Shown one piece after another: positions 11,107-62,076 of a DNA stretch of 64,000 nucleotides (the stretch's first letter is position 1; each line of letters starts with the position of its first letter). The position numbers and the translations under genes are program-made. Source of the DNA: Tilletia caries (taxonomy: Eukaryota; Basidiomycota; Exobasidiomycetes; Tilletiales; Tilletiaceae); assembly GCA_032718865.1 (NCBI GenBank), contig JALUTQ010000004.1, positions 2,356,001 to 2,420,000 on the forward strand, given 5' to 3'. The notes under the pieces are model-generated. The model made no database searches. It was given only the letters and a program-made list of their open reading frames with translations, and had not been told where the DNA came from.

Positions 11107-14100
11107 TCATGATCTCACCAATGAGGGCGTGGTTGAGGCTTGTGGCAAAAGGTCAGGTGTCATTACACCATGGAGCTCCAAATACTTGGTCAATGCAGAC
11201 AACCGGTTACAGTTGTCAATGGGTTCCCAGGTCTTATCTCCAGTAGACCACTGAACTAACAGCTGAAGCTTTGCGGACATCCATCTATGAGCCAGAATGT
11301 CATCCACATTCCACTCCTCTTCTTCATCAATGCCGAAGTCGTAGAAAGCCTTAGGATCTCGTCCAGGGAAGAGCTTGTCGTCATTTGGAACGTGAGGCTT
11401 AAGAAGACTACTGTGGAAGGTAGGATGGATGCGTCGCTCTATCAGCTCTTGCGGTAATGCAAGTGTAAACGCATCTCGTTCAGAGAAACATTTGACAATC
11501 TTGTAAGGGCCAATGTACCGTGGAAGAAGCTTTGCCGCTCTTCCGGATGGAAGCTTCAGATTGATAGTGGAAAGGTAAACTAGGTCGTTCACACGAAACT
11601 GAGTAGTTTCGGCGCGATGCTTGTTGGCTTGTGTTGTCTGTCGAGTACGAGCTGCAATGATATTGTCATGGGCCGCCATGAGATTAAGATTGATTCGCTC
11701 GTGATACTCTTTGACACCTTTGAACGGACTGACGTATGCCGACGATCCCAGATTGCGGGACATTGTCGGATTGAATCCATACAGCAGCTCAAAGGGACTG
11801 AAACCCGTGCTGGCGTTGGCTTGAGAGTTCATTGCGAACTCGGTAGTGGTCAGACGGTCAACCCAATCAGTCTGGTCGCTCTGAACGGTTGAGCGCAAGA
11901 TCTGAATTGCGGTTCGATTAGCGCTTTCCGTGGCGCCATCAGTCTGAGGATGATAGGCTGTGGAGAACAGGAGCCGGATATTGAGGAGGCGATGAAGTTC
12001 TTGCCAAAAGGTGGACTTCCAGCGAGTATCCTGGTCCGATACGATGCTCTCCGGCAGCCCGTGAAGCCGAACTATGTTGTCAAACACCAAGCGTGCGGAT
12101 TGCGACGCTGTAACGGTCATCACCGTCGGGATCAGGTGGACCATTGAGCTGAGCCTATCAATCACCACTAGGAGGAAATCAAAGCCGTTGCTCTGTGGTA
12201 GTGGTCCGACAAAGTCAAGGGCGATACCCAGCCAAGGCCTGTCTGGAACGCGAAGAGAGTGTAGCTTTCCGGCCGGCGCTTTGAGGGCGCGCTTAGTAAC
12301 CGCGCAAGTTCCGCAGGATCTACAGAATGATTCTACATCTTTGACCATGGTGGGCCAAAAGAAGTATCGACGGAGCTCAGTGAGAGTCTTGACGGAGCCG
12401 AGGTGCCCAAGAGATTTGTGGGCGTTGTCGATGAGTAGCTCCGTCACCCTCCTTCCTTTAAAAAGGACCCCCGGGATGCAAATGGACCGTGAGTCGGAGT
12501 CCTTTTGTTTGAACCAGACATACTTATCGGAGATCTCAAAGGTACTTGAGTGATCCTCGGGGTGAGCCCAAATCTTTGAAAAGAACGAGTCGCTCTGGTA
12601 TGCGGCACGTACAACGGGGCCGACATCGTCAGTGAATCCATTGACGTTGATAGGGCCAGGGCGATTCTTAGCGAGCGATGGTGAAGTCGTAGAGTCGCCA
12701 TCGGTAGCCGCAGTGCTGGATTGGACACGTGTAAGAATAGCAGCGGTGTACGGATGCGGAGCGTCGTCCGAATCCTGGTCCAATCGTGCGTCAGCGTTGA
12801 CGAAATCGTGCGCCTGGGTGGGTACTGCCGGATCTTCCCAGAAGCGAGAAAGGTAGTCGGCCACTACATTGGTCTCCCCCGCTACGTAGCGAATTTTGTA
12901 AGTGAATTTAGAAAGGTATTCAAGCCAGCGGACTTGACGACCGCTCAAAGTCCTCTGAGTTTGAAGATACTCCAGGCTGCGATGATCGGTAATGATGACG
13001 AATTCGCGGCCCAGAAGTTGATCTTCCCACTTCATTAAAGCCTCAAGCACCGCTAGAAGTTCCTGCTCGTGGGTACGATAGTTCATCTGGGCGGAATTGA
13101 ACTTGCGGCTGTGGAATCCAGCAGGTCGCATGGCTTGCCAAGACGGCCCTTGCCCATACAGCGCGCCCACCCCCGAAGTAGAAGCGTCCGTGACAACAAA
13201 AATCGGATCTTTATTGTGGGCAGGATCAATTGGCTTCAGAATGGGTGCATTAGCTGCAGCACGCTGCAAGCGGGCCAAGCAGTCAACTTGTAAAGGGCCC
13301 CACTCGAAAGGTTGGCCTTTGTGCGTAAGTTTTGAGATGGGGCCAGTCATAGTAGAGAGGTTAGGAAAGAACTGTGCGAGATATTGCATCAGTCCAAGGA
13401 AGCGCTGAACCTCCTTGACGGTCTTCATCTCCTTCCAGGCAATAATCTTACTGAGCTTATCTTCGTCCGCATGCAAACCCTTGTCGTCAATGACATGGCC
13501 AAGGCACATCATAGACGTAGAGTATAGGTCCATTTTGTCCTTGGACAGATAGAGCTTAGCTTCCCGCAAGATTTTAAAGATCAGCCCGAGATGCTCTTCA
13601 TGCTCCTCGATAGAATCTGAGAAAATGAATGTGTCGTCAAGGTACACATGGACGAACTTGCCGATGTGCTTTCGAAAGAGGTACATGACAAGTTGTTGAG
13701 CAGTGCTAGGGACGTTACAGTCACCCTGTTGTGCGACAAGACTGACAAACGTTCCAAAAGGCGTCGCGAACGCTGTTTTCCAAATATCTTCCGTAACAAC
13801 ACGAATTTGTTCAAAGAAGTCAGTTTGATCGAGCTTGGATCTATACTTCGCTCGAGCAACATCTCTCCGAATCACGTCTTGATCAGGAAATGGAGTTACA
13901 TCTTTGACAGTATTGTCGTTTCGCTGTCGGGCATCTACTACAGTTCGGATACGACCGTCCTTCTTTGGAATAACCATCATAGGCATGGCGGCCGGAACGC
14001 TCGCGCGCTGCCACCAGCCTGCCGAAGTGTAGGTATTGATCTTTTCCAGGTAGGCCTCGCGATACTGTTCGGGACACTTGGCTGGACGACAGAAAGGTTT

Positions 14101-16566
14101 GTAATCCTCCTTGATTAGAGGGATCGAATGATTGATCTCTCGGAACGGAGGAAGTGTCAGAGGACGAGGTCCCCAGAGGTCCTTAGTTGTTTCCATCCAT
14201 GTTTCACGAAGTCGCCGAGTGATGTGGTCCTCTAGTTCCGCAGTAAACGCTAACGGGGTAATCGAAGAAGAGTCGACAGGAAGGGATTCCTCCGTGAAAG
14301 TTTCCGTCACTTTGACGATTACAGGAGATCGAGGTTTCTTGAGGATCTTGTCAAGCTTGGAAGATGCAATTCCGAAAGCTGAAAGGGTTGATGGATTCTC
14401 TGGCGCATTCTTTGCTGCCGATACGGCGGCAGAAATCTTTTGACCTGGATCCCGTTTGTACACAATCTCATTTGTAGCAATGTCCAGCATGACACCAAAA
14501 TCTTTTTGATACGACGTGCCCAGAATAGCATCATAGCGATCGATGTTCAGAATATCGAAGTAGCGCTTCTGTTGCTTGCAACTACCATGAGTCAATTCCA
14601 CTATGCAGGCACGATTGATCTTGCCTCGTGAACCCGTGATAGCCAACTGCAAAGGAGAAGGTTCTTTGAGCTTGAAGTTCGAGATTTTGTGAGCGTCCAC
14701 AAATGATGCAGAAATGAGATCTGCCGTTGATCCTGAGTCAAACAAAGCTTTGGCCTTGTGACCATTAATCGAGACAGTTCCAGTGATGAGAAGAACCAGC
14801 GGAGGTCGGCTAGCGGGGCTATTGGCAGGGTCGCCAAAGCGCGGCTTGGAACTGGAGATGTTCGATTCCCGGACATTCGACATAATTGTAGCGGTAGAGA
14901 TACAGTTGCAGGCCAAGGGAACTTCCTCGTCGCGACCATTGGAGTCGTGGTCGCTCGAAGGGTGATCCATCATGTCATCAACTTCAGGGTCCTGGTCGTA
15001 GTATTGACCTTGATTGTCTGCGTCTTCTTCATCGTCGAACATAATGAGATTCGGTTCTTGCTCGTCGTCATCATCGTAAGACGGAGTTTGAACGTCGCCA
15101 TCATCCTCTAGGTCGATTAGATTGGTCCTAAGACGCTTTGGACAATCATTGGCCCAGTGACCAAACCCTTGGCATGACCGACACTGATCCGTAGGTTTGG
15201 GCCCAGAGGGTCGGGTGGCGGATACTGAGGAATTTCTAGGTGGTCCAGATGGTACCGGCCTAGAGAAGCTTGGATTCGGCCTTTGAATGTTGACTGGAGC
15301 TCGAGGTCGGTTGAATATGATGTTGGTGGGAGTTCGGCTAACTTGAACCGGCCGAGTTGTCTTGATGTCCTTGCGTTCTTCAGGTCGATGAGCGGCGACC
15401 TTGTTTAGCGTACCAGCGTAGCGATGAGCTCGTTCTTGATCCATCGCCGCTTGGATGATCTCATCCCATCCGGATATCTCCGCGTCAATGCCTCTGTTTG
15501 CAACGATCGCGGAACTGATAGTGTTCTTCATACCCTTCAGCAGTCGACGATTGAGAGCTATCGGACTAGGGTACTCCGTCATCTGGTCGGCCAGCTTGAG
15601 TAGGTAAGTCTGGAAGGAGTGGATATCCTTGCTACCTTGCTCAGCGCTTTCGAACTTGTCAGCCGCCTGGCGTGAAAGCTCGTCCACCAGATACTGACGC
15701 CGCAGAGCGACCATCAAGTTTGTTGCGGTCCATTGCTGAGCATGTGGTGCGACGTGCCTCCAATACCAGTCGAGGGGATCACCCGAGAGGTATCCTCTGA
15801 TCAGATCGACTTTCAGTATCTCGGAGAGGGGTGAGTGTAGCTTGAAGTAGTGGGCCACGGATTGAGTCCAGTCTGTAAAGACCTGGATTGATCGATCGCC
15901 TTTCCATTTCTCCGGAGCTACGATCTTGATCCCAGCTTTAGCCAACTCAGATTTGTCACCCGGGGCAACTTGTCCAGGTCGGTGAGTTGAGCTCATGATG
16001 TCGGAGATCTTCCTGTCGATGCCATGCATGATGACCGAGCTGGGAATACTTTGATGGCGATAGGAGGGAACGGGAGCCGAAGGTCGATGAGATCGAGGAG
16101 CCGTGTCCCGAGGAGGAAGAAGTCCGGCGCGTCGGAGTCGTTCGTTTTGTCGTTCACGGAGAACTGATTCGGTGTCGAAAGGAGCGGAGTCTTGAGGTGC
16201 TGGAATCTTGCTGGATCGTTTTTTCTGAAGGATAGCCTTGCGAATAGTCTTGAGTTCGAGTTCGAGTTCGAGTTCTTCAAGGGTCATGTCTTGAATACCA
16301 ATTGCCGAAGGATGATTAGAAAGCGCAGGATTGCCTTGGACGCCGTCGAATGAGACGGTGCGTTGACGATGGTGGTCCGGGGAGTGTTGTTCGAAATCCT
16401 GTTCATTCTCGTCTTCTGGTTGATCGATGTCGCCGAGTTCGGGAGTGCCGTCCAACGCGTCGTTGCCTTGGGGCTGTCCTTGACCTTCAGCGGGAGATCC
16501 GAAGTCGGGATTGCCGGAGCCGCCAGGTGCGATGTCCTCTGGGTCCTTGCGCTTTTTAGGTGCCAT
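11107..16566 (-). CDS. Ty3/gypsy gag-pol polyprotein
   Basis: An intact 1819-residue fusion, as in Tf1-type elements. It begins MAPKKRKDPE, a PKKRK-type nuclear signal. Gag spans about residues 220-400, followed by a CCHC knuckle (CRSCQGFGHWANDC, about 462). The aspartic protease has LFDSGSTADL (about 610). Reverse transcriptase has FVHVYLDDTFIFS with the YxDD box as YLDD (about 970). RNase H has VVTDASTSGVGAL (about 1125) and ITDHRSLEYL. The integrase has an HHCC-type finger (HKSLGHLG...CRSCGTC) and a catalytic triad in ALDFVGPLP (about 1450), VSDQDTRW (about 1510) and DGATESANRT (about 1547). A C-terminal chromodomain-like part has LLVQWSTGDKTWEP (about 1755). All catalytic residues that I can place are present, so it may be active. 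Confidence 0.97.
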   Translation of the reverse strand: MAPKKRKDPEDIAPGGSGNPDFGSPAEGQGQPQGNDALDGTPELGDIDQPEDENEQDFEQHSPDHHRQRTVSFDGVQGNPALSNHPSAIGIQDMTLEELELELELKTIRKAILQKKRSSKIPAPQDSAPFDTESVLRERQNERLRRAGLLPPRDTAPRSHRPSAPVPSYRHQSIPSSVIMHGIDRKISDIMSSTHRPGQVAPGDKSELAKAGIKIVAPEKWKGDRSIQVFTDWTQSVAHYFKLHSPLSEILKVDLIRGYLSGDPLDWYWRHVAPHAQQWTATNLMVALRRQYLVDELSRQAADKFESAEQGSKDIHSFQTYLLKLADQMTEYPSPIALNRRLLKGMKNTISSAIVANRGIDAEISGWDEIIQAAMDQERAHRYAGTLNKVAAHRPEERKDIKTTRPVQVSRTPTNIIFNRPRAPVNIQRPNPSFSRPVPSGPPRNSSVSATRPSGPKPTDQCRSCQGFGHWANDCPKRLRTNLIDLEDDGDVQTPSYDDDDEQEPNLIMFDDEEDADNQGQYYDQDPEVDDMMDHPSSDHDSNGRDEEVPLACNCISTATIMSNVRESNISSSKPRFGDPANSPASRPPLVLLITGTVSINGHKAKALFDSGSTADLISASFVDAHKISNFKLKEPSPLQLAITGSRGKINRACIVELTHGSCKQQKRYFDILNIDRYDAILGTSYQKDFGVMLDIATNEIVYKRDPGQKISAAVSAAKNAPENPSTLSAFGIASSKLDKILKKPRSPVIVKVTETFTEESLPVDSSSITPLAFTAELEDHITRRLRETWMETTKDLWGPRPLTLPPFREINHSIPLIKEDYKPFCRPAKCPEQYREAYLEKINTYTSAGWWQRASVPAAMPMMVIPKKDGRIRTVVDARQRNDNTVKDVTPFPDQDVIRRDVARAKYRSKLDQTDFFEQIRVVTEDIWKTAFATPFGTFVSLVAQQGDCNVPSTAQQLVMYLFRKHIGKFVHVYLDDTFIFSDSIEEHEEHLGLIFKILREAKLYLSKDKMDLYSTSMMCLGHVIDDKGLHADEDKLSKIIAWKEMKTVKEVQRFLGLMQYLAQFFPNLSTMTGPISKLTHKGQPFEWGPLQVDCLARLQRAAANAPILKPIDPAHNKDPIFVVTDASTSGVGALYGQGPSWQAMRPAGFHSRKFNSAQMNYRTHEQELLAVLEALMKWEDQLLGREFVIITDHRSLEYLQTQRTLSGRQVRWLEYLSKFTYKIRYVAGETNVVADYLSRFWEDPAVPTQAHDFVNADARLDQDSDDAPHPYTAAILTRVQSSTAATDGDSTTSPSLAKNRPGPINVNGFTDDVGPVVRAAYQSDSFFSKIWAHPEDHSSTFEISDKYVWFKQKDSDSRSICIPGVLFKGRRVTELLIDNAHKSLGHLGSVKTLTELRRYFFWPTMVKDVESFCRSCGTCAVTKRALKAPAGKLHSLRVPDRPWLGIALDFVGPLPQSNGFDFLLVVIDRLSSMVHLIPTVMTVTASQSARLVFDNIVRLHGLPESIVSDQDTRWKSTFWQELHRLLNIRLLFSTAYHPQTDGATESANRTAIQILRSTVQSDQTDWVDRLTTTEFAMNSQANASTGFSPFELLYGFNPTMSRNLGSSAYVSPFKGVKEYHERINLNLMAAHDNIIAARTRQTTQANKHRAETTQFRVNDLVYLSTINLKLPSGRAAKLLPRYIGPYKIVKCFSERDAFTLALPQELIERRIHPTFHSSLLKPHVPNDDKLFPGRDPKAFYDFGIDEEEEWNVDDILAHRWMSAKLQLLVQWSTGDKTWEPIDNCNRLSALTKYLELHGVMTPDLLPQASTTPSLVRS

Positions 16567-34639: not shown

Positions 34640-35697
34640 TCTGAGGCTATGAGGGTTGCGCGCGACTGGCGAGAGTGAGTATTGTGCTGAGCTTACTGCT
34701 GAGCAGGGCGATCGAGAACGAAGCATGGCTCGTTCTGAAACGATTGAGCAAATAAATTGCTGTTCCCACTGCCTGCACCATCGATCCCAGACGATCTTCC
34801 TTCTTTTCCTCGACATCGACACTTCAAGATCGGTTCGTAAACACAGAGTGCTTCAAGACCGAAAACACCTGGGCGTTGGACACGCCGTACCATATCCATC
34901 ATCCGCGACGACGCAATGCGTGAGGCCAGAAATGCCTCCTCGACAAACTTCGCCAAGCGTTAAAAAACCCCTCTCACGCGTTCACGATCAAGTTCAAGAA
35001 GAAACGGGCGGGGTTCGGAACCATCTCGATTGAAAAAGCAGCTTGGGTCAAAGGGATACCATATCCCCGCGCTTTCAAAGTCGGTCGCATTCGGGCTGAC
35101 GAGCCCATCGATGACACCCTGGCGGCCGACACACACACACCATGGTGGCATGGTCGAGAACGGCGAATGGTACATCTTTGTACCGAAGCGAGGCTCTTCT
35201 TGAAAATCAAGAGACCAGTCCTCAGCCGCCAAAAATTGCCCTATCGATCCTGGTGTACGTTGCTTTGCGATTGTGTACGATCCCCTTCGAGCCCAAGTCG
35301 TCAAGTGGGGGGAGGGAGACCAGCGCCGACTGCCGTATCTTCTGGCTTGGAATCTTTTTGGACAATCTGCTGTCTCTAATGACACAAGTACGGGCTAAAA
35401 ACCGGTACAGAATGCGGCGAGCTCCAAATCGGATGCGAAAGAAGATCAAAAACCTGGTCGATGATCTTCACAAGAAGTTTGCGGCTTGGCTGGCAAAGCA
35501 ATAAGAGTACATCTTGTGTCCGGCGTTGAATACTCACCAAATGTCTAAAACGGAGGATCACTCGGAAGACCTTACGAACGATAAGAAGCTGGGCCCACGG
35601 CCGCTTCCGGACCCGGCTCGGATTCACGACAGAATACGTCTCTTGCACAGCAGAATATACCAGCAAATACATAAGCCGCTGTAAGAATTACGGCTGA
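34640..35697 (+). pseudogene. Decayed Fanzor (TnpB-like nuclease) relic
   Basis: Pieces in several frames line up with the Fanzor at 43.8 kb. They are LLDKLRQALKNP with HAFTIKFKKKRAGFGTISIE (34960-35035), NGEWYIFVPKRG (35160), CPIDPGVRCFAIVYDPLRAQ with the RuvC-I Asp at 35246-35248, and YRMRRAPNRMRKKIKNLVDD (35405-35470). After these come LCPALNTHQM (35517), RKTLRTIRSWAHGRFRTRL (35580-35630) and AEYTSKYISRCKNYG up to a TGA at 35695. Stops and frameshifts separate the blocks, so no full protein can be made. The order and spacing are those of Fanzor/TnpB proteins. The zinc ribbon and RuvC-III are lost or damaged. Confidence 0.85.
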
Positions 35698-43201: not shown

Positions 43202-43684
43202 GATCAATCCTTTCACATGATGCTCAAATTTAAGTATCTGAGGGACGAAAAAAGTGGTACAAACTTACAATATAAAAGAGCATGGGAACTGATGGTGTCT
43301 TTCACGGCCTGTTGCATAGGAGACTGACTATGAACCTCAAGTCTTTTCGCTTTCACGCAGCGAAAACCTCGCGGCAGTTGCTTCATCCACAGAGCTAACG
43401 AGTAACTCCAGTCGTCCTATGACCATCTGTGATTTGGAATACAGTGCTTATCTAGAAACCCAGTCTATTCAGGAAGGGGTTTCAGCGAAGTTTGACGTGA
43501 AATGCTAACATTTTGGGCCTCGGGCTCTCAGCACTTGTGGATCTATAGCTCTTTGCACAGCTACGACGGCGCGGCTTCCTCATGTCCTTGTAGTCTCGTT
43601 GCTCGCACAGTCCCCAACGTAGAAAATTGCTGGGTGACAGAGCTGGAAATTTCAGTGAAGGAGCAGTCGCCAGTGTTTCGACTG

Positions 43685-43752
43685 CATACTGTATCCTGTC
43701 ACAGTATACTGTCGCAGTACTACTTTTTGCTAAAACATACTGTATCCTGTCG
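43685..43752. repeat. Direct repeat upstream of the Fanzor
   Basis: CATACTGTATCCTGTC occurs twice, about 51 bp apart, just before the Fanzor start, with CAGTATACTGTCGCAGTACT between. Confidence 0.7.
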
Positions 43753-43790
43753 GAAATTTGGGCGGTTTCGACTATTACATACAGATCACC

Positions 43791-45260
43791 ATGGCCGACC
43801 CTCCGCCTGCGCCCTGGATTGGGTCAGTAGCACCAGAATCGGTGCTGTGGCCTGGCGTAAGAGGCACACAACAGGCGGCGGAGTGGCATAATGCGCCGAT
43901 CGATTTTTGGTTTCTACCAAAGTACGCCCACCTGCCGCATCCAGTCGTGCCGGATGAAAATATCGGTGGAATGCTCACACAGCTGAGCGCTACACTCCGG
44001 CAGCGCCTCGACGCTGTGCCTCCAACACCGCCGCCTCGTAGGACCAGACCTGGAGAGCGCCAAGATAATTCGCGCTTGAAGACCTATCGCACCCGGCTTC
44101 GGCCGAATACACAGCAAATGGAGGCACTTCGCAAAACGGCTGGAATAGTCAGGTGGACTTACAACCGGGCGGTGGAGTACCTCAAGGCTCACCCAAACGC
44201 CTCTTTTCACGACGTCCGCGAACATTCAGTTACAGAGGATGGCCTTCCTCTTATGAACCTGTCATGGGTGACTCCGGTGCTATACAGCATCAGGGAGCAG
44301 GCGTTCTTTGACGCCCATACAGCGCTTCGGAATGGCTTGGCGGACGTTCGGGCCGGCGAAATTCCGAACTTCGAGCTGAAGTTCCGGAAAAAGCGGGCGC
44401 TCTTCTCCTCCTTCCGAATTCGGACACGTGACTGGGACGGAGGATGCCTCAAGATCCCGAATTTCAGTCTGGGTCCAGGTCAGCACCAGACCAAGATTCA
44501 GACGGGGATCGACGTTCCATCGCTGGAGCATGATGGGGCATGCATCAAGCAGGAGAACGGGTCATGGTTCCTGCTTTGGCAGAAGGACATGGGGGAAGAA
44601 AAGATGCGGGTTCCTGCAGCACGTGGGCCAGAAATGTGTGCCATTGACCCCGGCGTTCGGACATTTGCCACCATTTACGACCCTTTGCGGGGAACGGCGG
44701 CAAAATTTGGCGATGGAGACCACAAGCGTCTTTTCCGCCTCGATACGCACTTGGATGAGTTGATCTCGGGATCAACCCAAGCTTCAGCAAAAAAAAAGTG
44801 TTACCGCATGCGCCGCGCCGCAAATCGACTGCGTGCAAGAATCCGGCATCTGGTCGACGAGCTCCATTGGAAGCTGCGTAGCTACCTCAAGCAAAGTTTC
44901 GACACTGTGCTGCTGCCAAAATTCAACGCGCACCAGATGTCTCGGCGAGGTCAAAGGCGGATCGGGCGAAAGACAGTCAGAGCCATGATGACGTGGGCGC
45001 ACGGTCGCTTCAGAAGCCGATTAAATGAAGCTATGGAGGTCGTCTAGGTGGTGGAGGACTGGACATCCAAGGTCTGCTCAACGTGCGGCACGGTTAATCA
45101 CAGACTTGGAGGCAGCGAAATCCACCGCTGCCCCGGATGTCTCACAGTCTCGGATCGAGACGTCAATGCGGCAAAAAACATTTTCCTCCACTGGAAATAT
45201 GATTTCTCAACTAGTGACAGCGACATAATCTCTTTTTCTCACTCTAAACCTCAGCCGTAG
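43791..45260 (+). pseudogene. Fanzor RNA-guided nuclease family protein with one in-frame TAG
   Basis: The start at 43791 is chosen for its context (CACCATGGCC). The first 418 codons are open, then a TAG (45045-45047), then 70 more codons in the same frame. Motifs are an N-terminal RLKTYRTRLRPNTQQMEALR, RuvC-I CAIDPGVRTFATIYDP (Asp about 286), the Arg-rich bridge RMRRAANRLRARIRHLVDEL, RuvC-II LLPKFNAHQM with Pro (about 376) where TnpB has Glu, then WAHGRFRSRL. After the TAG come VEDWTSKVCSTCG with an alternative Glu (about 422), CPGC completing a zinc ribbon, and RuvC-III DRDVNAAKNI (Asp about 457). In this family RuvC cuts DNA guided by an RNA from the element's 3' end. If translation stops at the TAG the nuclease is dead. 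Confidence 0.92.
45045..45047 (+). other. In-frame TAG in the Fanzor
   Basis: GTC TAG GTG GTG GAG: CAG would restore Gln with one transition. It removes the alternative Glu, zinc ribbon and RuvC-III. There is no acceptable intron around it. Confidence 0.85.
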
Positions 45261-45872
45261 GAAGAGTACAGTCAGCGCCCGCTACAGTCATCATGTTGCA
45301 GCGCCGAGATTTTGGTGAATAGAATGAGATGTGACTATAGGCGGAATGTCACGTGCTTCCTGACCCAAAAGTTTCGGGGTCTCAAAGTCTCATTTACAGC
45401 CAAAATGACCCTTAGACCTGCACCTCATCTGAGGACTAAGCCCTGGAGCGAGGAGGCTTTGGAAAGAGCATGAGGTCGAGGACACATGGTGTGTTGGCAC
45501 CGCCAATAGTGAAGTGTGTAGCGAGTCGCTAACGAAACAAAAGCAAGTGCAGAGTGTGTAGAATGTGTGAATGGTGAAGAGAACTAAGTACAACTGAGGA
45601 ATGCGAGCTGAGTGAAAAGATGTGACTGAGGGAGATGCGTGAGAAAGTGGAGGTGCGGTGGTGTTGCTATGCGGGATGCGTGGGAAAGGCGTGAGAGAGC
45701 ACGAGAGAGAAAGGAAGAAATTAGATAAGATATGGAGATACCACGTGGAGTAGCCACGAGCTGCTTGCGAAATGCCAGCACACATGGAGCATGGGATTGT
45801 GGAGGTGTGAGGCATAAAGAGTGGGGCATGGGGGAATAGATGTCAGATGATACAATGGAAGTGAATCAGTGA

Positions 45873-51610: not shown

Positions 51611-54543
51611 GAGCGCTCGAGAAATTTATGACTGCAACAGGCTTGACTTCGTCTGGGTATTCTGTCCTCTCCGCTGCGTGCGGCTCAATTCCATGCACGC
51701 ATTTCGTTGTTTACCATTCTTGGGCAACAAAGTGTTGGCAGCAGTGGTATATAATTTCCATTCCAGAATTAATCAACGATGAAAATTCCCGATCGTAAAG
51801 ACGTTATAATGTGTGATTGCGAAAGCGCCAGGTCTGGGGCTCGAGTCTCCCGGATGTCAAATATTTATTTATTTATTTTTGTTTTTAGTTATTTTTTAAA
51901 TTCATTCTGCAATCGCTGGACTTTCATCGCCCTCGCAGCACCTTTCTGCGGCGCTGGGAATTCCCAATTTGCTCCATTTCATGCTGTCCAGATCACTCCC
52001 ATGATACTCGGGAGTATTGCTCTGGAGCGTACCAGAGTATTCTGCTCCGGAGTGCTCCCGAAGACCGCAGAAAATACTCGGGAGTGAGAGGGAAGTTGTC
52101 TCCACTCAGACCCCGAGTCACTCTGGAGTACTCGGCCGAGGAGGTTTATCACAGGATGGTACGGTATTTTGATTTTTATCCCAGGATGGTACACCAGCGA
52201 AAATTATCCCAGGATGGTACAGTGGCAAAATTCAAATTCTCCTGCACCTCATTAATGCACGAAGCTCAGAGTAATTGAAGACTGTGTTTCAGCCCCAGGC
52301 GGCAGTCCATCACTGTTGAAAGGTCGTGGACCTCAGATCGCCAGTTTACTGTAACGCGCTTGGTATTGTTCTGCTCTAGCTGGTGGGCCTCTAGGTACAT
52401 TCGCTCGTACAGAGGGTTCGGAAGAAGGAAAAAGTGAAGAGAATGATCACGTGCAAAAGAGCGTGGGAATCGATCATGGATCGAAAGAAAGTAAAGGAAG
52501 TCACGGAAGAAGTAACGAAGGTATCCGAAGGGTCAGATGTCAGACCCTGCAACTGTCCAGTCCAAGCACAATCTCGACACTCCGCCTACAGCTGCCCTAC
52601 CTCTGACATGCCCACTGCTCTGCAGCCAGTCTCTTCCGACGACACCTACGCGTCGCTAGAGGACTTCAAGCATGCTGTTCGCCTCTATGCAATCAAAAAC
52701 AACTTCAATCCCACATGGGAACAGTCGAAGTCGACGTGGGTTGTGGCAGTTTGCGAGCACAAGAAGGCCAGTGGCTGCAGTTTTCGGATTCGGGCACATG
52801 TTGATCTAGACGACACTGACGTGGTGCGCGTCTCGACCTTCGACGAAGGGCATACATGTGCTGGCAAAGCGCCTTCGAAGCGCAAAGCCTATGCAGATCA
52901 CGGCTTTCTTGTTTTGCTGGTGAGAAATCAATCTATTCCCCTTCTTCCCCTGCCAGATTCCTACTGCTTGATGTTCACCCAGCAACAGCCAACAGGCCTG
53001 GTGCCGTCTGCTGCATGATCTGCAGGCTAGAGTACTGATTGGCGCTGTATTCCAATTTTACCTTTTTGTTCTGACTTCTGAGTTTCTGACACAGATCCAG
53101 AGCTGCATGAGCATCGATCACAAGACGACCGACGCCCAGGTGCTCGCCCAGCTGAAGCAGATACACGGAATTACACTTCCCCAGAATACGGTCAATAAAG
53201 CACGAAATGCTGTTATCGGTTCTGCAAAGGCGGCTCAGCAGGAGGAGTTCCGGTACATTGAGGCGTGGCTCACCCGACTCAGTGAGATTTGAGAAGGACC
53301 CCGGCGCCGTGACGGAGCATGTCACAGTCGACGGGACGTTCACCCGCGCGTTCCTCAGCCCCGGTCCTGCTCGGCGAGCGTGGACGGCGTGCAAGCCGTT
53401 CATGGCAGTCGACGGCACCTTCAGCAAGAACAAATTCAATATGGTTTTACTCCTTGCTGCCAGCATGGACGCCGACAGCAACCTCGTCATTCTCGCGTGG
53501 GCTCTCGTTCCGACTGAGAGTACGGACACGTGGGAATGGTTTCTTGGCAAGCTACTTATTACCTTTCCCTCTCTCGCCCAGTCGTCAAGCACAATCATCT
53601 CGGACCGAGAGAAGGGACTCCTTGCGGCAGTCCGAGCGGTGCTCCCCAATACCACCGAAGAATATTGCTGCTGGCATCTGGCTGAAAACGTGAAGAAGGG
53701 TTACGGAGCCGAGGCGCGAAAGCTGTTCTGGCCGCTAGTCTACGCGTCTCCGAAGGCTAAATTCGACACCTGTATGACGGCACTTCGCCAGTGCAAACCC
53801 GGAGCAGCGGACTACTTAGCCGACACCGCCGTTCCACACAAACACTGGGCCAGTTACGCGTTCCTGGGTCGACGCTTCGACCACGTGACGTCTAATCTGA
53901 GCGAGATCGCCAACTCTGCTCTGCGACAGCATCGGGAACTCCCTCCCCTCCAAATGATGGCGGGTCTAAGAAGTTTGTACAAAGGTACTATGTTACTATG
54001 ATGATTTCAGTCCGATGGTCCACATGGCACTAATATCACATAGGGAACGTACTGCTGAGAGATCCCATACCTCAGATACCTTACATACTTCTTCCAGTCC
54101 TTCTTGGTGTCTCACATAACATCCATAGTCATACCAGACCTCAGGTGTAATTACTATCTCTCACTCACATAGGAGTTAGTGGGTTCACTGTTGGTGGTGT
54201 ATATTGACTATTCAGGACCTCAACACCTCAACCCGCACCTCAACCCGCACCTCACCTATCGCCACCACCTATCTCGCCACCCACTGTGACCGCCCACGAC
54301 GGAACGTGCTCACGGCGGAACGTGCCCGGCTACCTTAACCCTTTCACATGTCTCCTGTTCCACTCGCTTCCCAGTCTCTAGCTCACTGTTGCTTCGTCGC
54401 CTATTGTGGCTGTGTATGTAGTTTAGGTTATCAGGTGATTTTGTGTTTTTTGGTTAACTGTGACTTAGGTTCTGACTCAGGGTCACGGCTCCCACAGTCA
54501 ACCAAGCGCAGCGATGGACTGCGCACCTGGGACACCTGAAAGG

Positions 54544-58211: not shown

Positions 58212-61200
58212 ATGGCCGGTGCCAACCCGAGCGCAGCAATTGCTGCTGACGCCGAAGCCGAGGCGATTTAGTTGATCGCCCAATACCATTTCGGCAAAGT
58301 GGACAGGGAGGAGGTCGATACCAAGCTCGAGTCGCTGCAGATTCCGCCGAATATCAAGCGGGCATACAAGATGTTCCGCACAGATCTAATGCAAGCGGAA
58401 GAGGAGGAGGTTACGAAACAGCTGCTGAAAGACTTCGTAAGTCCCTCGCTCCCATCCCCATTCCTCCGTTGTCGATATCGTGGCCGGATGACCAAGGGCT
58501 GACACTCTCCTTCCCACACGGTGATCTCCTTCTTATCCTCACGTTACCCACGCCAGCAATCGCCACCTTGCGGAAGCGCTGCAATTCTGCGCAGACTACG
58601 ACGGATACGTTGCTTTCATCGAAGAACATCGCGTCGAAGAGGAAGCGCAGCAAGCCGAGAATCTACTCGGCTCGGTCGCTCCCAAACCCCCTCCCAACAG
58701 CGGATCACCGTCAAAAGGCGGCCCACAGAAGCGCAAGCAGGCATCTTCTTCCGCACTCGAAGTCCCCGGCAAAAGAACCCGCCCAACCCGGAAATCTGCC
58801 AGTCCGTCCCGTCTTTCCGACTTCCAGATCGAGAGTCACGGAAAGAACCGACGCGGCCGCGTCAGCGGAGCGCAGGGCAAGCAGTACGGCAGGGACAACG
58901 AAGGGCAGGAAAGTGACGAAGAGGAGGACTTCAGCGATGATGATGGCAACGAGGAAGAAGAGGGGGATGACGACGAGGATGGGGAGGAAGACGACGAGGA
59001 CGAGTCCGAAGACGACGAGGACGAGTCCGAAGAAGAGGATTCGTTACGCACACCCAAGCGGGCTACGGGGAAGGCAGGAGCCGTGGGAGGGAGTACTTCC
59101 GTCAAAGGGAAGGGTGAGGCTGTCGCCAAGAAACCCAAGAGCAAGGGCGTCAAGAAGAAAACCTCCTCCATCACCAAACGTGGTCGTACCAGCGGCGTCA
59201 AGCTCACCCCATTGACCGCTCAGGAGAAGAGCGAATTCGACGCCTCGGGTTCCCAGACGTCCCGGCTCATCCAGGCTCCCAAAAAGAAGGCGATGCTCAG
59301 CAAGGCCGCTCAAGATTCGTTGGACGGCGTTTCCCTCAAGGCCAAGGGGTACTTCGGCTTCAAGTTCTCCCACATGGAGTCCGAAGGAGGCAAGATCCGA
59401 GAGAAGTGGATCTGCCTGTTCTGCCTCGAGCAGAAGACGGTGCCGAAGGGGAAGAACAACAACTTGGGGAACCACCGAGGCTGCTGCCCCTTCAATCTCA
59501 AGCCGAAAAGTCCGGGGCTGGAGCCCTACTACCCCCCCGGTTCCAAACGCGCTCCCACAGAGGCCTCCAACATGTCGGAGGCAGGAGTCTCGTATCGAGG
59601 CCGCAGTCTTAAAGGCTGGCTCTCTGGCGACCAAGTCCTTTGCCTTCCTCTGGTGCGCCGCATGGGATTGATCGAGATCATCACCTACGCGCAGCCATTC
59701 ACTCATATGGCTTCGCCTGCTCACATCGCGCTGGTGTCGAGTATTGACCCCAACGCTGTCGCTGCCTGCGTCAGTCACACCACGGTCCGACGGGACCTCG
59801 AACTTCTGACCGACACGATGAAGGTCGAGGTCATGCGGATCCTCAACGAGCAAGATTCTCTCGTGACCCTGCAACACGACGCGTGGACGATGCGCGGGTA
59901 TCGCTTCGCGTTCGTGGCGATCATCGCTACCTACGTCGACCGCGATTGGAATTTCCGAAGTCTCCTGCTCTCTTTCCGGGTTCTCGACACCCGACATTCC
60001 GGCGCAAGCTTCGCCAGACATCTTGTCGAGACCATCCAAGAGTTCTACCTGGAAGCCAAGTGGTCTGGACTCATCGTCAGCGACTCAGCGTCGCCTAATC
60101 GGCGTATGGCTGCGGTACTGCAACAGGAACTCGCTCAGCGCAATGACAAGGTCAAGTTCCTGGCTGAGTGCCTGCATGGTATCGGCGACGGTCAAGCTGC
60201 ATTTCATCATGAAGCGACCAACCCCAACCCATTCGCATCAGCGACGCACGACGTGGAGTCGTCCGGTGCCTCAAACAGTGTCTCCGCCTTTCCCAAGGCT
60301 TCTCGGCGCTCCAACTTCGTCTGGCGTGCGGACGATTGCGGAATCCTCTGCTTCGCCCACCACCTGAACATCGCGATCCGTGACGCTTTCAACGCCATGG
60401 GGACCAAATTCGCTGCGCAAATGAAGGTCATCCCCATTCCAGAGATTGTCGAACCTGCACTTGATTCCAATCTTGGGTTCTCCGCCAATTCAAATGCAGC
60501 GGATGAAGGAGGCATGGACACAGCAGCTGATACTGCCGATATCGACGACGAAGGGCCAGAAGAAAGGTTCGATACCACGCCTATGTCCGAACACGCTCCC
60601 CCTTCGGACGAACGTGGCGGAGAAGACGACGACGACGAAGATCTGGTTTTCCTCAGCGCAGGACAGAGGGAGGAGCTCATCAATCGACTCGGGGACGGTC
60701 CATCAGAAGATGTCGCGGCGGGTACCGGTGGCGCCTGGTCGGCAGTGAAGCGGGTGGAAGGCTTTGTTGTCGCTCTCCACCGCAGTGCAGAACGAATCGC
60801 TGCGTTCAGAGCTGTCATGCGGAAGGAGTATCACAACGACCCAGCGAAGGTGGGTGCGGCAATTCCCACGAAGCCCAACGACACCCGTTGGAACTCTCAG
60901 GTGGCGACTCTACGCTCCGCGTTGCGCGTGAAGGAGGCCGTGGATCTATCGATCGCTCAGGAGAAAGACGCGAACCATCCTTACAAGCCTTTCAGCCTCA
61001 GTGATGACGACTGGAAGCACGTCGATTGGTTGGTGCAGTTCTTGAGCCTGGCTGAACGGACTTCGATGAAGATACAAGAGTCCACCTCAACGCTTTGCGA
61101 CGTGCTCGAATACCATGTCTTGATGGCGACGAGCATCGACTCAACACTCGAGGAACTCGGCGATCAGACAGGTGCCGACCTCGACGCGATGTCTGCCAAT

Positions 61201-62076
61201 GCCAAGGACATGAAGCCCGAAGACGCGCCTAACCAAGTCGCGGCGGCACTTCGCGCCATGAAGATCAAGCTGGGAAAGTACCGCGTCATCGCCGTAAACA
61301 ATCGGACTACGGTGCTTGCGACCCTGTTGCATCCCAAGCATCGTTTGATGCTGTTCGAGGCCGACTATCCGAGTCACGCCACAAAGGCGAGATCGATTCT
61401 GCTTGCGGCGGTCAAGGAGCTGGTAACCACACCGCGCGGAGGAGGGTTAGCTTCTCGATCGGCTGCGCAGTTGACGAGCGTACACTCGCCCCTGAAGAGG
61501 GCGCAGCAGGAACGCATGGCTCGGGTACAAGAACGGGTTGCAATCACGTCTGCGACAACCGGAGACCCGCACGAAGAGGAAGTCGGTAGCTACCTTCGGA
61601 ACGTGTTGCCCTGGAGGGATACGGACGGCAGTGCTCAGCAATGGTGGAAGGTCAACGAAACCGAGTTCCCGACGCTCGCTAAGCTCGCCCGTATCGTTTT
61701 ATCGGCACCAGGCAGTACAGCCGACGTCGAGCGCGTATTTTCGACTGCTGGATGGATGATGTCGTCGCGACGGGGCCGGATCAACGGTGAAACTCTCGGA
61801 TGGCTGGTCACAACGCACGGATGGATGCGCCAAGGAGTGGATAGGCTGGTCGGCTTAGACCAAGCGGCGCGAGCAACCGGGGCCCCCATCCTGGAGAAGA
61901 TGGATGCTGCGATCGCCAAAAAGAAGGAAAAACGAGACAACGCGCCGAATCATGGCGCCGTAGGGCTGTGCCCTCTTAGTTCTTTGTCTGCTAGCTCCGA
62001 GTCCTCAATTGAATGCCTTACTGTTGATTCATGCCCCCCACGACCGAGATTTGTAGGAAAGATCATACATATATAG
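58212..62076 (+). CDS. hAT transposase, long open frame with an early TAG
   Basis: Exon 1 begins MAGANPSAAIAADAEAEAI, has a TAG at 58269-58271, then IAQYHFGKVDREEVDTKLES to a donor at 58437 (GTAAGT). The likely acceptor is CCAG at 58556. A strict join is one base out of frame with the long exon 2, so there is further damage or a different splice site. Exon 2 is open for more than 1100 codons. It has an acidic run, a BED-like finger (WICLFCLEQKT...LGNHRGCC, 59405-59490), first Asp LQHDAWTMRGYRFAF (59878), second Asp LIVSDSASPNRRM (about 60082), CFAHHLNIAI, and the C-terminal dimer block with VLSAPGSTADVERVFSTAGW holding the catalytic Glu. It catalyses cut-and-paste transposition. The core triad is complete. 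Confidence 0.9.

What the first reader, a model, noticed from the sequence alone, without database searches (positions are those of the whole stretch)
43791..45260. A nearly complete Fanzor split by one TAG just before its alternative catalytic Glu
The sequence directly shows RuvC-I, the bridge, RuvC-II, zinc ribbon and RuvC-III in one frame, with one TAG at 45045-45047. RuvC-II has Pro where TnpB has Glu. A Glu 46 positions later (VEDWTSK) sits where the published rearranged Fanzor/TnpB active site places the replacement Glu. The TAG is three codons before it, so a truncated product would lose two of the three active-site acids and the zinc ribbon. The gene is otherwise undamaged. It may be freshly dead, or it may be expressed with stop editing or readthrough.
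Basis: partly seen in the sequence, partly recalled or inferred. Interest (0 to 1): 0.92.

Follow-up and report, generated by a model that had tools for sequence, protein, structure and literature searches.

The report
Decayed Fanzor gene in bunt fungus
This is one worn-out copy of a Fanzor gene (the eukaryotic relative of CRISPR enzymes) from a repeated mobile element in what appears to be a wheat-bunt fungus; unbroken copies sit elsewhere in the same genome, so the stop codon looks like ordinary decay.

Summary
In detail: one frame, window 43791-45260, encodes a Fanzor2/TnpB-type protein with DPG at RuvC-I, Pro at the canonical RuvC-II site, the alternative Glu 46 residues later, a zinc ribbon and RuvC-III; one TAG (45045-45047) lies three codons before that Glu. 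'Otherwise undamaged' does not hold. The host genome (38.1 Mb, unnamed; Tilletia by inference) has 19 further copies, 94-98% identical over the frame. None of the 15 informative unjoined copies has a stop at this codon; 5 of 19 are open through the zinc ribbon. The window copy also has a one-base frameshift near codon 471, in a run that varies among siblings too, and lacks the leader kept by 15 of 19 others and the folded 3' tail kept by 16 of 19. Its private changes, 9 nonsynonymous to 2 synonymous, look neutral. A T. laevis protein ends at the same residue and shares 9 of the window's 10 private residues, so the stop is neither an assembly error nor unique to this genome. Best reading: a pseudogene of a Fanzor2-type family. 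Readthrough or editing has no support, but no expression data were available.

The parts
43772..45239 (+). Remnant of the Fanzor element: the stretch here that matches the other copies (about 94-97% identical)
   Evidence: blastn against held copies; leader and tail pieces not found in the window
43791..45044 (+). Fanzor reading frame before the stop, 418 codons
   Evidence: Pfam; NCBIfam guided_TnpB E 3.4e-15 (56.2 bits, below its cut-off of 100)
44076..44186 (+). N-terminal HTH_OrfB_IS605 domain (residues 96-132)
   Evidence: E 2.1e-10, 40.4 bits against cut-off 21
44646..44654 (+). RuvC-I DPG (residues 286-288)
   Evidence: D286 and P287 invariant in alignment A1
44916..44918 (+). Pro376 at the canonical RuvC-II position
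45045..45047 (+). In-frame TAG, codon 419
   Evidence: stop at this codon in 0 of 15 unjoined informative other copies
45054..45056 (+). Alternative catalytic Glu422, downstream of the stop
   Evidence: the corresponding Glu (E439 of P0006) is invariant in the 43 relatives of alignment A2
45075..45140 (+). Zinc ribbon (Cys429 to Cys450)
   Evidence: Cas12f1-like_TNB E 1.2e-11
45156..45161 (+). RuvC-III RD (residues 456-457)
45195..45212 (+). Zone of a one-base frameshift near codon 471, after RuvC-III; this copy's frame runs past the siblings' usual stop (codon 474-475) and out of the element
43671..43769 (+). About 100-bp dispersed repeat abutting the left edge of the remnant
   Evidence: 38 other matches in the genome, 37 of them within query 96-212

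Best explanation
It is a dead copy (pseudogene), truncated at both ends, of a multi-copy Fanzor2-type transposable element in a Tilletia genome. Fuller copies are at least 2.4 kb: a leader of about 0.77 kb or more with a probable 5'-UTR intron, one Fanzor gene of about 474 codons, and a ~0.2-kb 3' part whose last ~130 bases fold into stem-loops and probably form the omega-RNA scaffold, with the guide read from DNA beyond the right end. In such copies the protein would bind that RNA and cut matching DNA, which helps the element persist. The window copy lost leader and tail, took a frameshift near the C terminus and a stop before the alternative Glu, and seems to drift neutrally. Shown here: homology, copy number, damage, missing ends, fold of one sibling's tail, the same protein end in T. 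laevis. Inferred: promoter, intron, omega-RNA role, nuclease activity of open copies, host identity.
For: 19 other copies in the genome. Stop at codon 419 in 0 of 15 unjoined informative copies. 5 of 19 open through the zinc ribbon (L010, L011, L013, L015 stop at 474-475; L016 shows no stop in the stretch examined). Window-specific frame near codon 471, unlike 18 of 18 other copies with that site. Leader found in 15 of 19 others and not in the window; tail in 16 of 19 others (two of them, L011 and L014, displaced by inserts) and not in the window. Private changes 9 nonsynonymous: 2 synonymous, neutral expectation 76% nonsynonymous, p = 1.0, against dN/dS 0.41 over 105 pairs of 15 other copies. 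T. laevis P0002 ends at the same residue and shares 9 of 10 private residues. Closest solved structure by sequence and by fold is the mimivirus Fanzor2 9b0l.
Against: No transcript data, so silence of this copy is not shown. The private changes are few, and nine of the ten private residues are shared with T. laevis P0002, so they cannot be dated to before or after the stop; weak selection on the first 418 codons is not excluded. The frame before the stop has no other stop or frameshift. Between the stop and codon 470 only one private change was seen, synonymous (which included three joined rows): no sign of decay after the stop. The frameshift lies after RuvC-III in a run whose length also varies among siblings (14 copies one length, 4 another), so it may matter little. 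The leader is also missing from 4 of 19 other copies. The left end of the element and its mobilising enzyme were not settled.
Confidence: 0.88

Rival explanations
1. The 418-residue product is kept as a nuclease-dead Fanzor that works like bacterial TldR: it binds omega-RNA made by sibling copies and represses matching DNA or the family itself.
For: The same C-terminal end occurs in a T. laevis protein that shares 9 of 10 private residues. The frame before the stop has no other stop or frameshift. RuvC-inactive TnpBs have become RNA-guided repressors in bacteria (TldR; passages of PMC13418256). The truncated chain gives a partly confident model (mean pLDDT 73.8) whose best solved match is the mimivirus Fanzor2.
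Against: No leader and no tail in cis. Private changes fit neutrality, though they are few. Part of RuvC and the whole zinc ribbon are lost. Several annotated neighbours in the window are transposon genes.
Confidence: 0.04
2. The gene is expressed full-length by stop readthrough or RNA editing.
For: The frame continues after the stop with zinc ribbon and RuvC-III, and that stretch shows no private nonsynonymous change.
Against: Other copies encode a sense codon there. Siblings L011 and L013 end their own frame in TAG (read), so TAG serves as a stop in this family. The frame is shifted near codon 471 and runs into flanking DNA. The leader is missing.
Confidence: 0.02
3. The stop lies in an intron or is an assembly error.
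For: None found beyond the general possibility.
Against: Sibling copies align through the site without an intron. A T. laevis protein from another record ends at the same residue with four differences elsewhere.
Confidence: 0.02

Closest known systems
Mimivirus Fanzor2 (TnpB-like protein L79, PDB 9b0l)
   Same: Best solved match by sequence (phmmer E 1.1e-18 with P0001; E 3.4e-63 with a profile of 43 relatives, window left out) and by fold of the truncated product (Foldseek E 2.1e-16); in the alignment it too lacks Glu at the canonical place and has one before the zinc ribbon
   Different: The window copy is truncated; whole-chain TM-scores are low (0.34 / 0.31); no serine recombinase found in this genome
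Fanzor2 and 'pro-Fanzor' TnpBs with DPG and alternative Glu (Yoon et al. 2023, PMC10711439; passages)
   Same: Both fingerprints are in the sequence; by pattern, 111 of the 120 listed relatives (of 340 found) carry both
   Different: No IS607-type recombinase match in the genome
Other Tilletia TnpB-like proteins (P0003, P0005, P0006, P0007, P0008, P0010, P0022)
   Same: 37-63% identity to the window frame
   Different: The four whose sequences I saw (P0003, P0006, P0008, P0010) run through the zinc-ribbon region; lengths of the seven are 399-655 residues, two labelled partial
TldR, bacterial nuclease-dead TnpB repressors (PMC13418256, passages)
   Same: Nuclease site lost
   Different: No guide-RNA tail in cis and no sign of selection here; loss by truncation

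Membership tests
Fanzor2 / Fanzor (sequence family) | DPG motif at RuvC-I | tested here: met
   Residues 286-288
Fanzor2 / Fanzor (sequence family) | Alternative Glu six residues before the zinc finger, none at the canonical site | tested here: met
   Glu422, six residues between it and Cys429; Pro376 at the canonical site. It lies after the stop
Fanzor2 / Fanzor (sequence family) | D-X(125,275)-[TS]-[TS]-X-X-C4 zinc finger-X(5,50)-RD (Bao and Jurka 2013, PMC3627910, passages) | tested here: met
   D286, T425-S426, Cys429/432/447/450, R456-D457
Fanzor2 / Fanzor (sequence family) | N-terminal HTH_OrfB (reported in some TnpB and Fanzor2) | tested here: met
   Pfam E 2.1e-10
IS607-type Fanzor2 element | Serine recombinase TnpA partner | tested here: not met
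   Resolvase PF00239: 0 matches in the six-frame genome search, which disregards introns; the same search rang in 10 of 14 control genomes
Fanzor2* in a cut-and-paste transposon | Terminal inverted repeats and target-site duplications | tested here: inconclusive
   No inverted match to the right end on the left side of held copies (14-base seed, up to 2 mismatches); left end not settled, target duplications not tested
Functional Fanzor nuclease (this copy) | Uninterrupted frame through RuvC-III | tested here: not met
   Stop at codon 419
Functional Fanzor nuclease (this copy) | omega-RNA scaffold at the element's right end | tested here: not met
   The sibling tail is not in the window; in one sibling it folds with z -4.26. 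That the tail is an omega-RNA is inferred
TldR-like repressor | Inactive RuvC with retained guide RNA | tested here: not met
   RuvC truncated; no tail in cis
TldR-like repressor | Selection to keep the truncated protein | tested here: inconclusive
   9 nonsynonymous: 2 synonymous private changes, neutral-like but few and not datable to the stop

The most novel reading that the evidence does not exclude
The 418-residue product, whose end is shared with T. laevis, is a domesticated nuclease-dead eukaryotic Fanzor that borrows omega-RNAs from sibling copies and represses the family or other targets: a eukaryotic counterpart of TldR.
Probability: 0.04. Interest if true: 0.75.

Novelty: new member of a known kind. 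Interest (0 to 1): 0.2.

Why it matters
As a single gene it matters little: it reads as a pseudogene. The family is of more use: a compact, multi-copy Fanzor2-type family in what appears to be a smut fungus, with five copies open through the zinc ribbon, sharp right ends and a tail that folds well in the sibling tested. I did not find it in print (Fanzor + Tilletia: 0 papers; Tilletia + TnpB: 0 papers; an open-licence library only). It could serve to compare open and dead Fanzor copies within one genome and to ask what moves a Fanzor2-type element when no serine recombinase is found.

Tried and rejected
Intron across the stop: rejected, siblings align through it. Assembly error: unlikely, T. 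laevis P0002 ends at the same residue. IS607 partner: the Resolvase search gave 0 matches. Inverted repeat of the right end: two matches in the held loci, one being the inverted copy L020b itself and one a 2-mismatch match inside L035. Locus L035 (same end pieces, about 8.9 kb of other interior) as a possible partner element: Pfam gave 0 families for 6 of 6 frame pieces tried, and the window's MULE protein gave only E 1.6 and 3.9 in it; left open. TATA pattern in the leader: found in only 2 copies, L016 and L025, so the promoter is a guess. A paper search on nuclease-dead TnpB gave three papers, one of them on TldR. Rfam on the window at gathering thresholds: 0 matches. The model of the truncated product is moderate (pTM 0.53) with low whole-chain TM-scores (0.34 for 9b0l): it agrees with the family and says nothing on function.

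Full report
What is there. Read in two pieces on either side of TAG 45045-45047, the first carries HTH_OrfB_IS605 and a sub-threshold OrfB_IS605 match, the second the Cas12f1-like TNB zinc ribbon; NCBIfam's guided_TnpB model matches both pieces below its cut-off. Motif numbers are DPG 286-288, Pro376, Glu422, CxxC at 429 and 447, RD 456-457. These are the Fanzor fingerprints given by Yoon et al. (PMC10711439, passages) and by Bao and Jurka (PMC3627910, passages). The closest solved structure by sequence is the mimivirus protein L79, 9b0l, titled a Fanzor2 ternary complex. So the family call and the rearranged active site are right.

Whose genome. The held genome (G000, 38.1 Mb, 40 contigs, unnamed) is assigned to Tilletia by inference: the best protein match is a 418-residue T. 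laevis protein at 99% identity (P0002), followed by other Tilletia proteins. The three wheat-bunt species are reported as 98.7-99.6% identical in aligned regions (PMC9172201, passages), so I do not name the species.

Other copies. Searches of the genome found 19 further copies with 94-98% identity over the frame (tabulated; three are interrupted by inserts). The tool states that its counts of repeats are lower bounds. The window copy differs from L020a/b by about 2.2%, from L009 and L012 by 3.1 and 3.8%, and from the rest by 4.7-5.9%. At codon 419 no informative unjoined copy has a stop (0 of 15). Five of 19 are open through the zinc ribbon: L010, L011, L013 and L015 stop at codon 474 or 475, and L016 shows no stop in the stretch examined. 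The other 14 carry frameshifts, stops, inserts or truncations.

Damage to the window copy beyond the stop. First, its frame near codon 471 differs by one base from all 18 other copies with that site; the run there also varies among them, 14 of one length and 4 of another. The shift carries the window's frame past the usual stop and out of the element, so that the terminal stop at 45258-45260 lies beyond the matching DNA. It falls after RuvC-III and may matter little. Second, the leader is absent. Fuller copies have about 0.77 kb or more before the ATG. A CAAG|GTRAGT donor pattern is found in 14 of the 15 copies that keep the leader (and once in L009, which lacks it), and TACAG|ATCACCATGG in 15 of 19 copies and in the window; a TATA pattern was matched in only two. 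The leader piece itself is in 15 of 19 others and not in the window. Third, the 3' tail is absent from the window; it is in 16 of 19 others, displaced by inserts in L011 and L014 (for L010 a tail lies about 8 kb away). In sibling L016 the 132-base piece folds at -45 kcal/mol, z -4.26, with 0 of 200 shuffles folding as well. The left edge of the remnant abuts a ~100-bp repeat with 38 other matches, 37 of them in that part.

Age and selection. Private changes before the stop are 9 nonsynonymous to 2 synonymous, as expected under neutrality (76% nonsynonymous, p = 1.0), whereas 105 pairs of 15 other copies give dN/dS 0.41 and the five open copies 0.39. The T. laevis protein P0002 ends at the same residue, differs at 4 of 418 residues, and shares 9 of the 10 window residues seen in none of 16 other rows. 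Because most private changes are shared with P0002, they cannot be placed before or after the stop, and the neutral ratio is only moderate evidence. Between the stop and codon 470 a single private change, synonymous, was seen (joined rows included).

How fuller copies probably work. From established knowledge of TnpB and Fanzor, the protein of an open copy would bind an omega-RNA that ends at the right end of the element and use the adjoining flank as guide to cut matching DNA. The sharp right ends and the folded tail fit that; no activity was shown here. No serine recombinase of the IS607 kind was found and no terminal inverted repeat was seen, so the moving enzyme is unknown.

Verdict. The stop codon is one of several defects in what reads as a dead copy. 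Readthrough, editing or a kept truncated repressor are not excluded, since no expression data were available, but little in the sequence favours them. The truncated product was folded as it stands (46-row alignment, mean pLDDT 73.8, pTM 0.53) and matches Fanzor2 and TnpB structures by Foldseek with low whole-chain TM-scores.

Noticed in passing
window 35126-35552: A second, more decayed Fanzor fragment (two matches of 42% identity with a stop in each) about 8 kb upstream of the remnant.
   Followed up: no
L035 (G000 C5:897500-907400): A locus with the same left-leader and right-tail DNA as the Fanzor elements but about 8.9 kb of different interior in place of the gene; possible partner element or nested insertion.
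   Followed up: partly
L028-L032 (G000 C34 about 1.247, 1.264 and 1.271 Mb; C28 about 0.824 and 0.840 Mb): A second Fanzor lineage in the same genome, 29-50% identical to the window frame over most matched stretches.
   Followed up: no
L020 (G000 C5:1947400-1957300): The two closest copies, in inverted orientation about 4.6 kb apart, share a 4-base deletion and the same DNA just beyond the right end.
   Followed up: partly
window 11107-16566 (-), 53207-54001 (+), 59083-62076 (+): Transposon-rich surroundings: an 1819-codon frame with reverse transcriptase and integrase domains, a MULE transposase match, and a hAT dimerisation match (Pfam).
   Followed up: no
window 45267-45472: Part of the right flank matches one other place at 93% (C7:1350965-1351170); a separate 40-base piece matches C5.
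   Followed up: no
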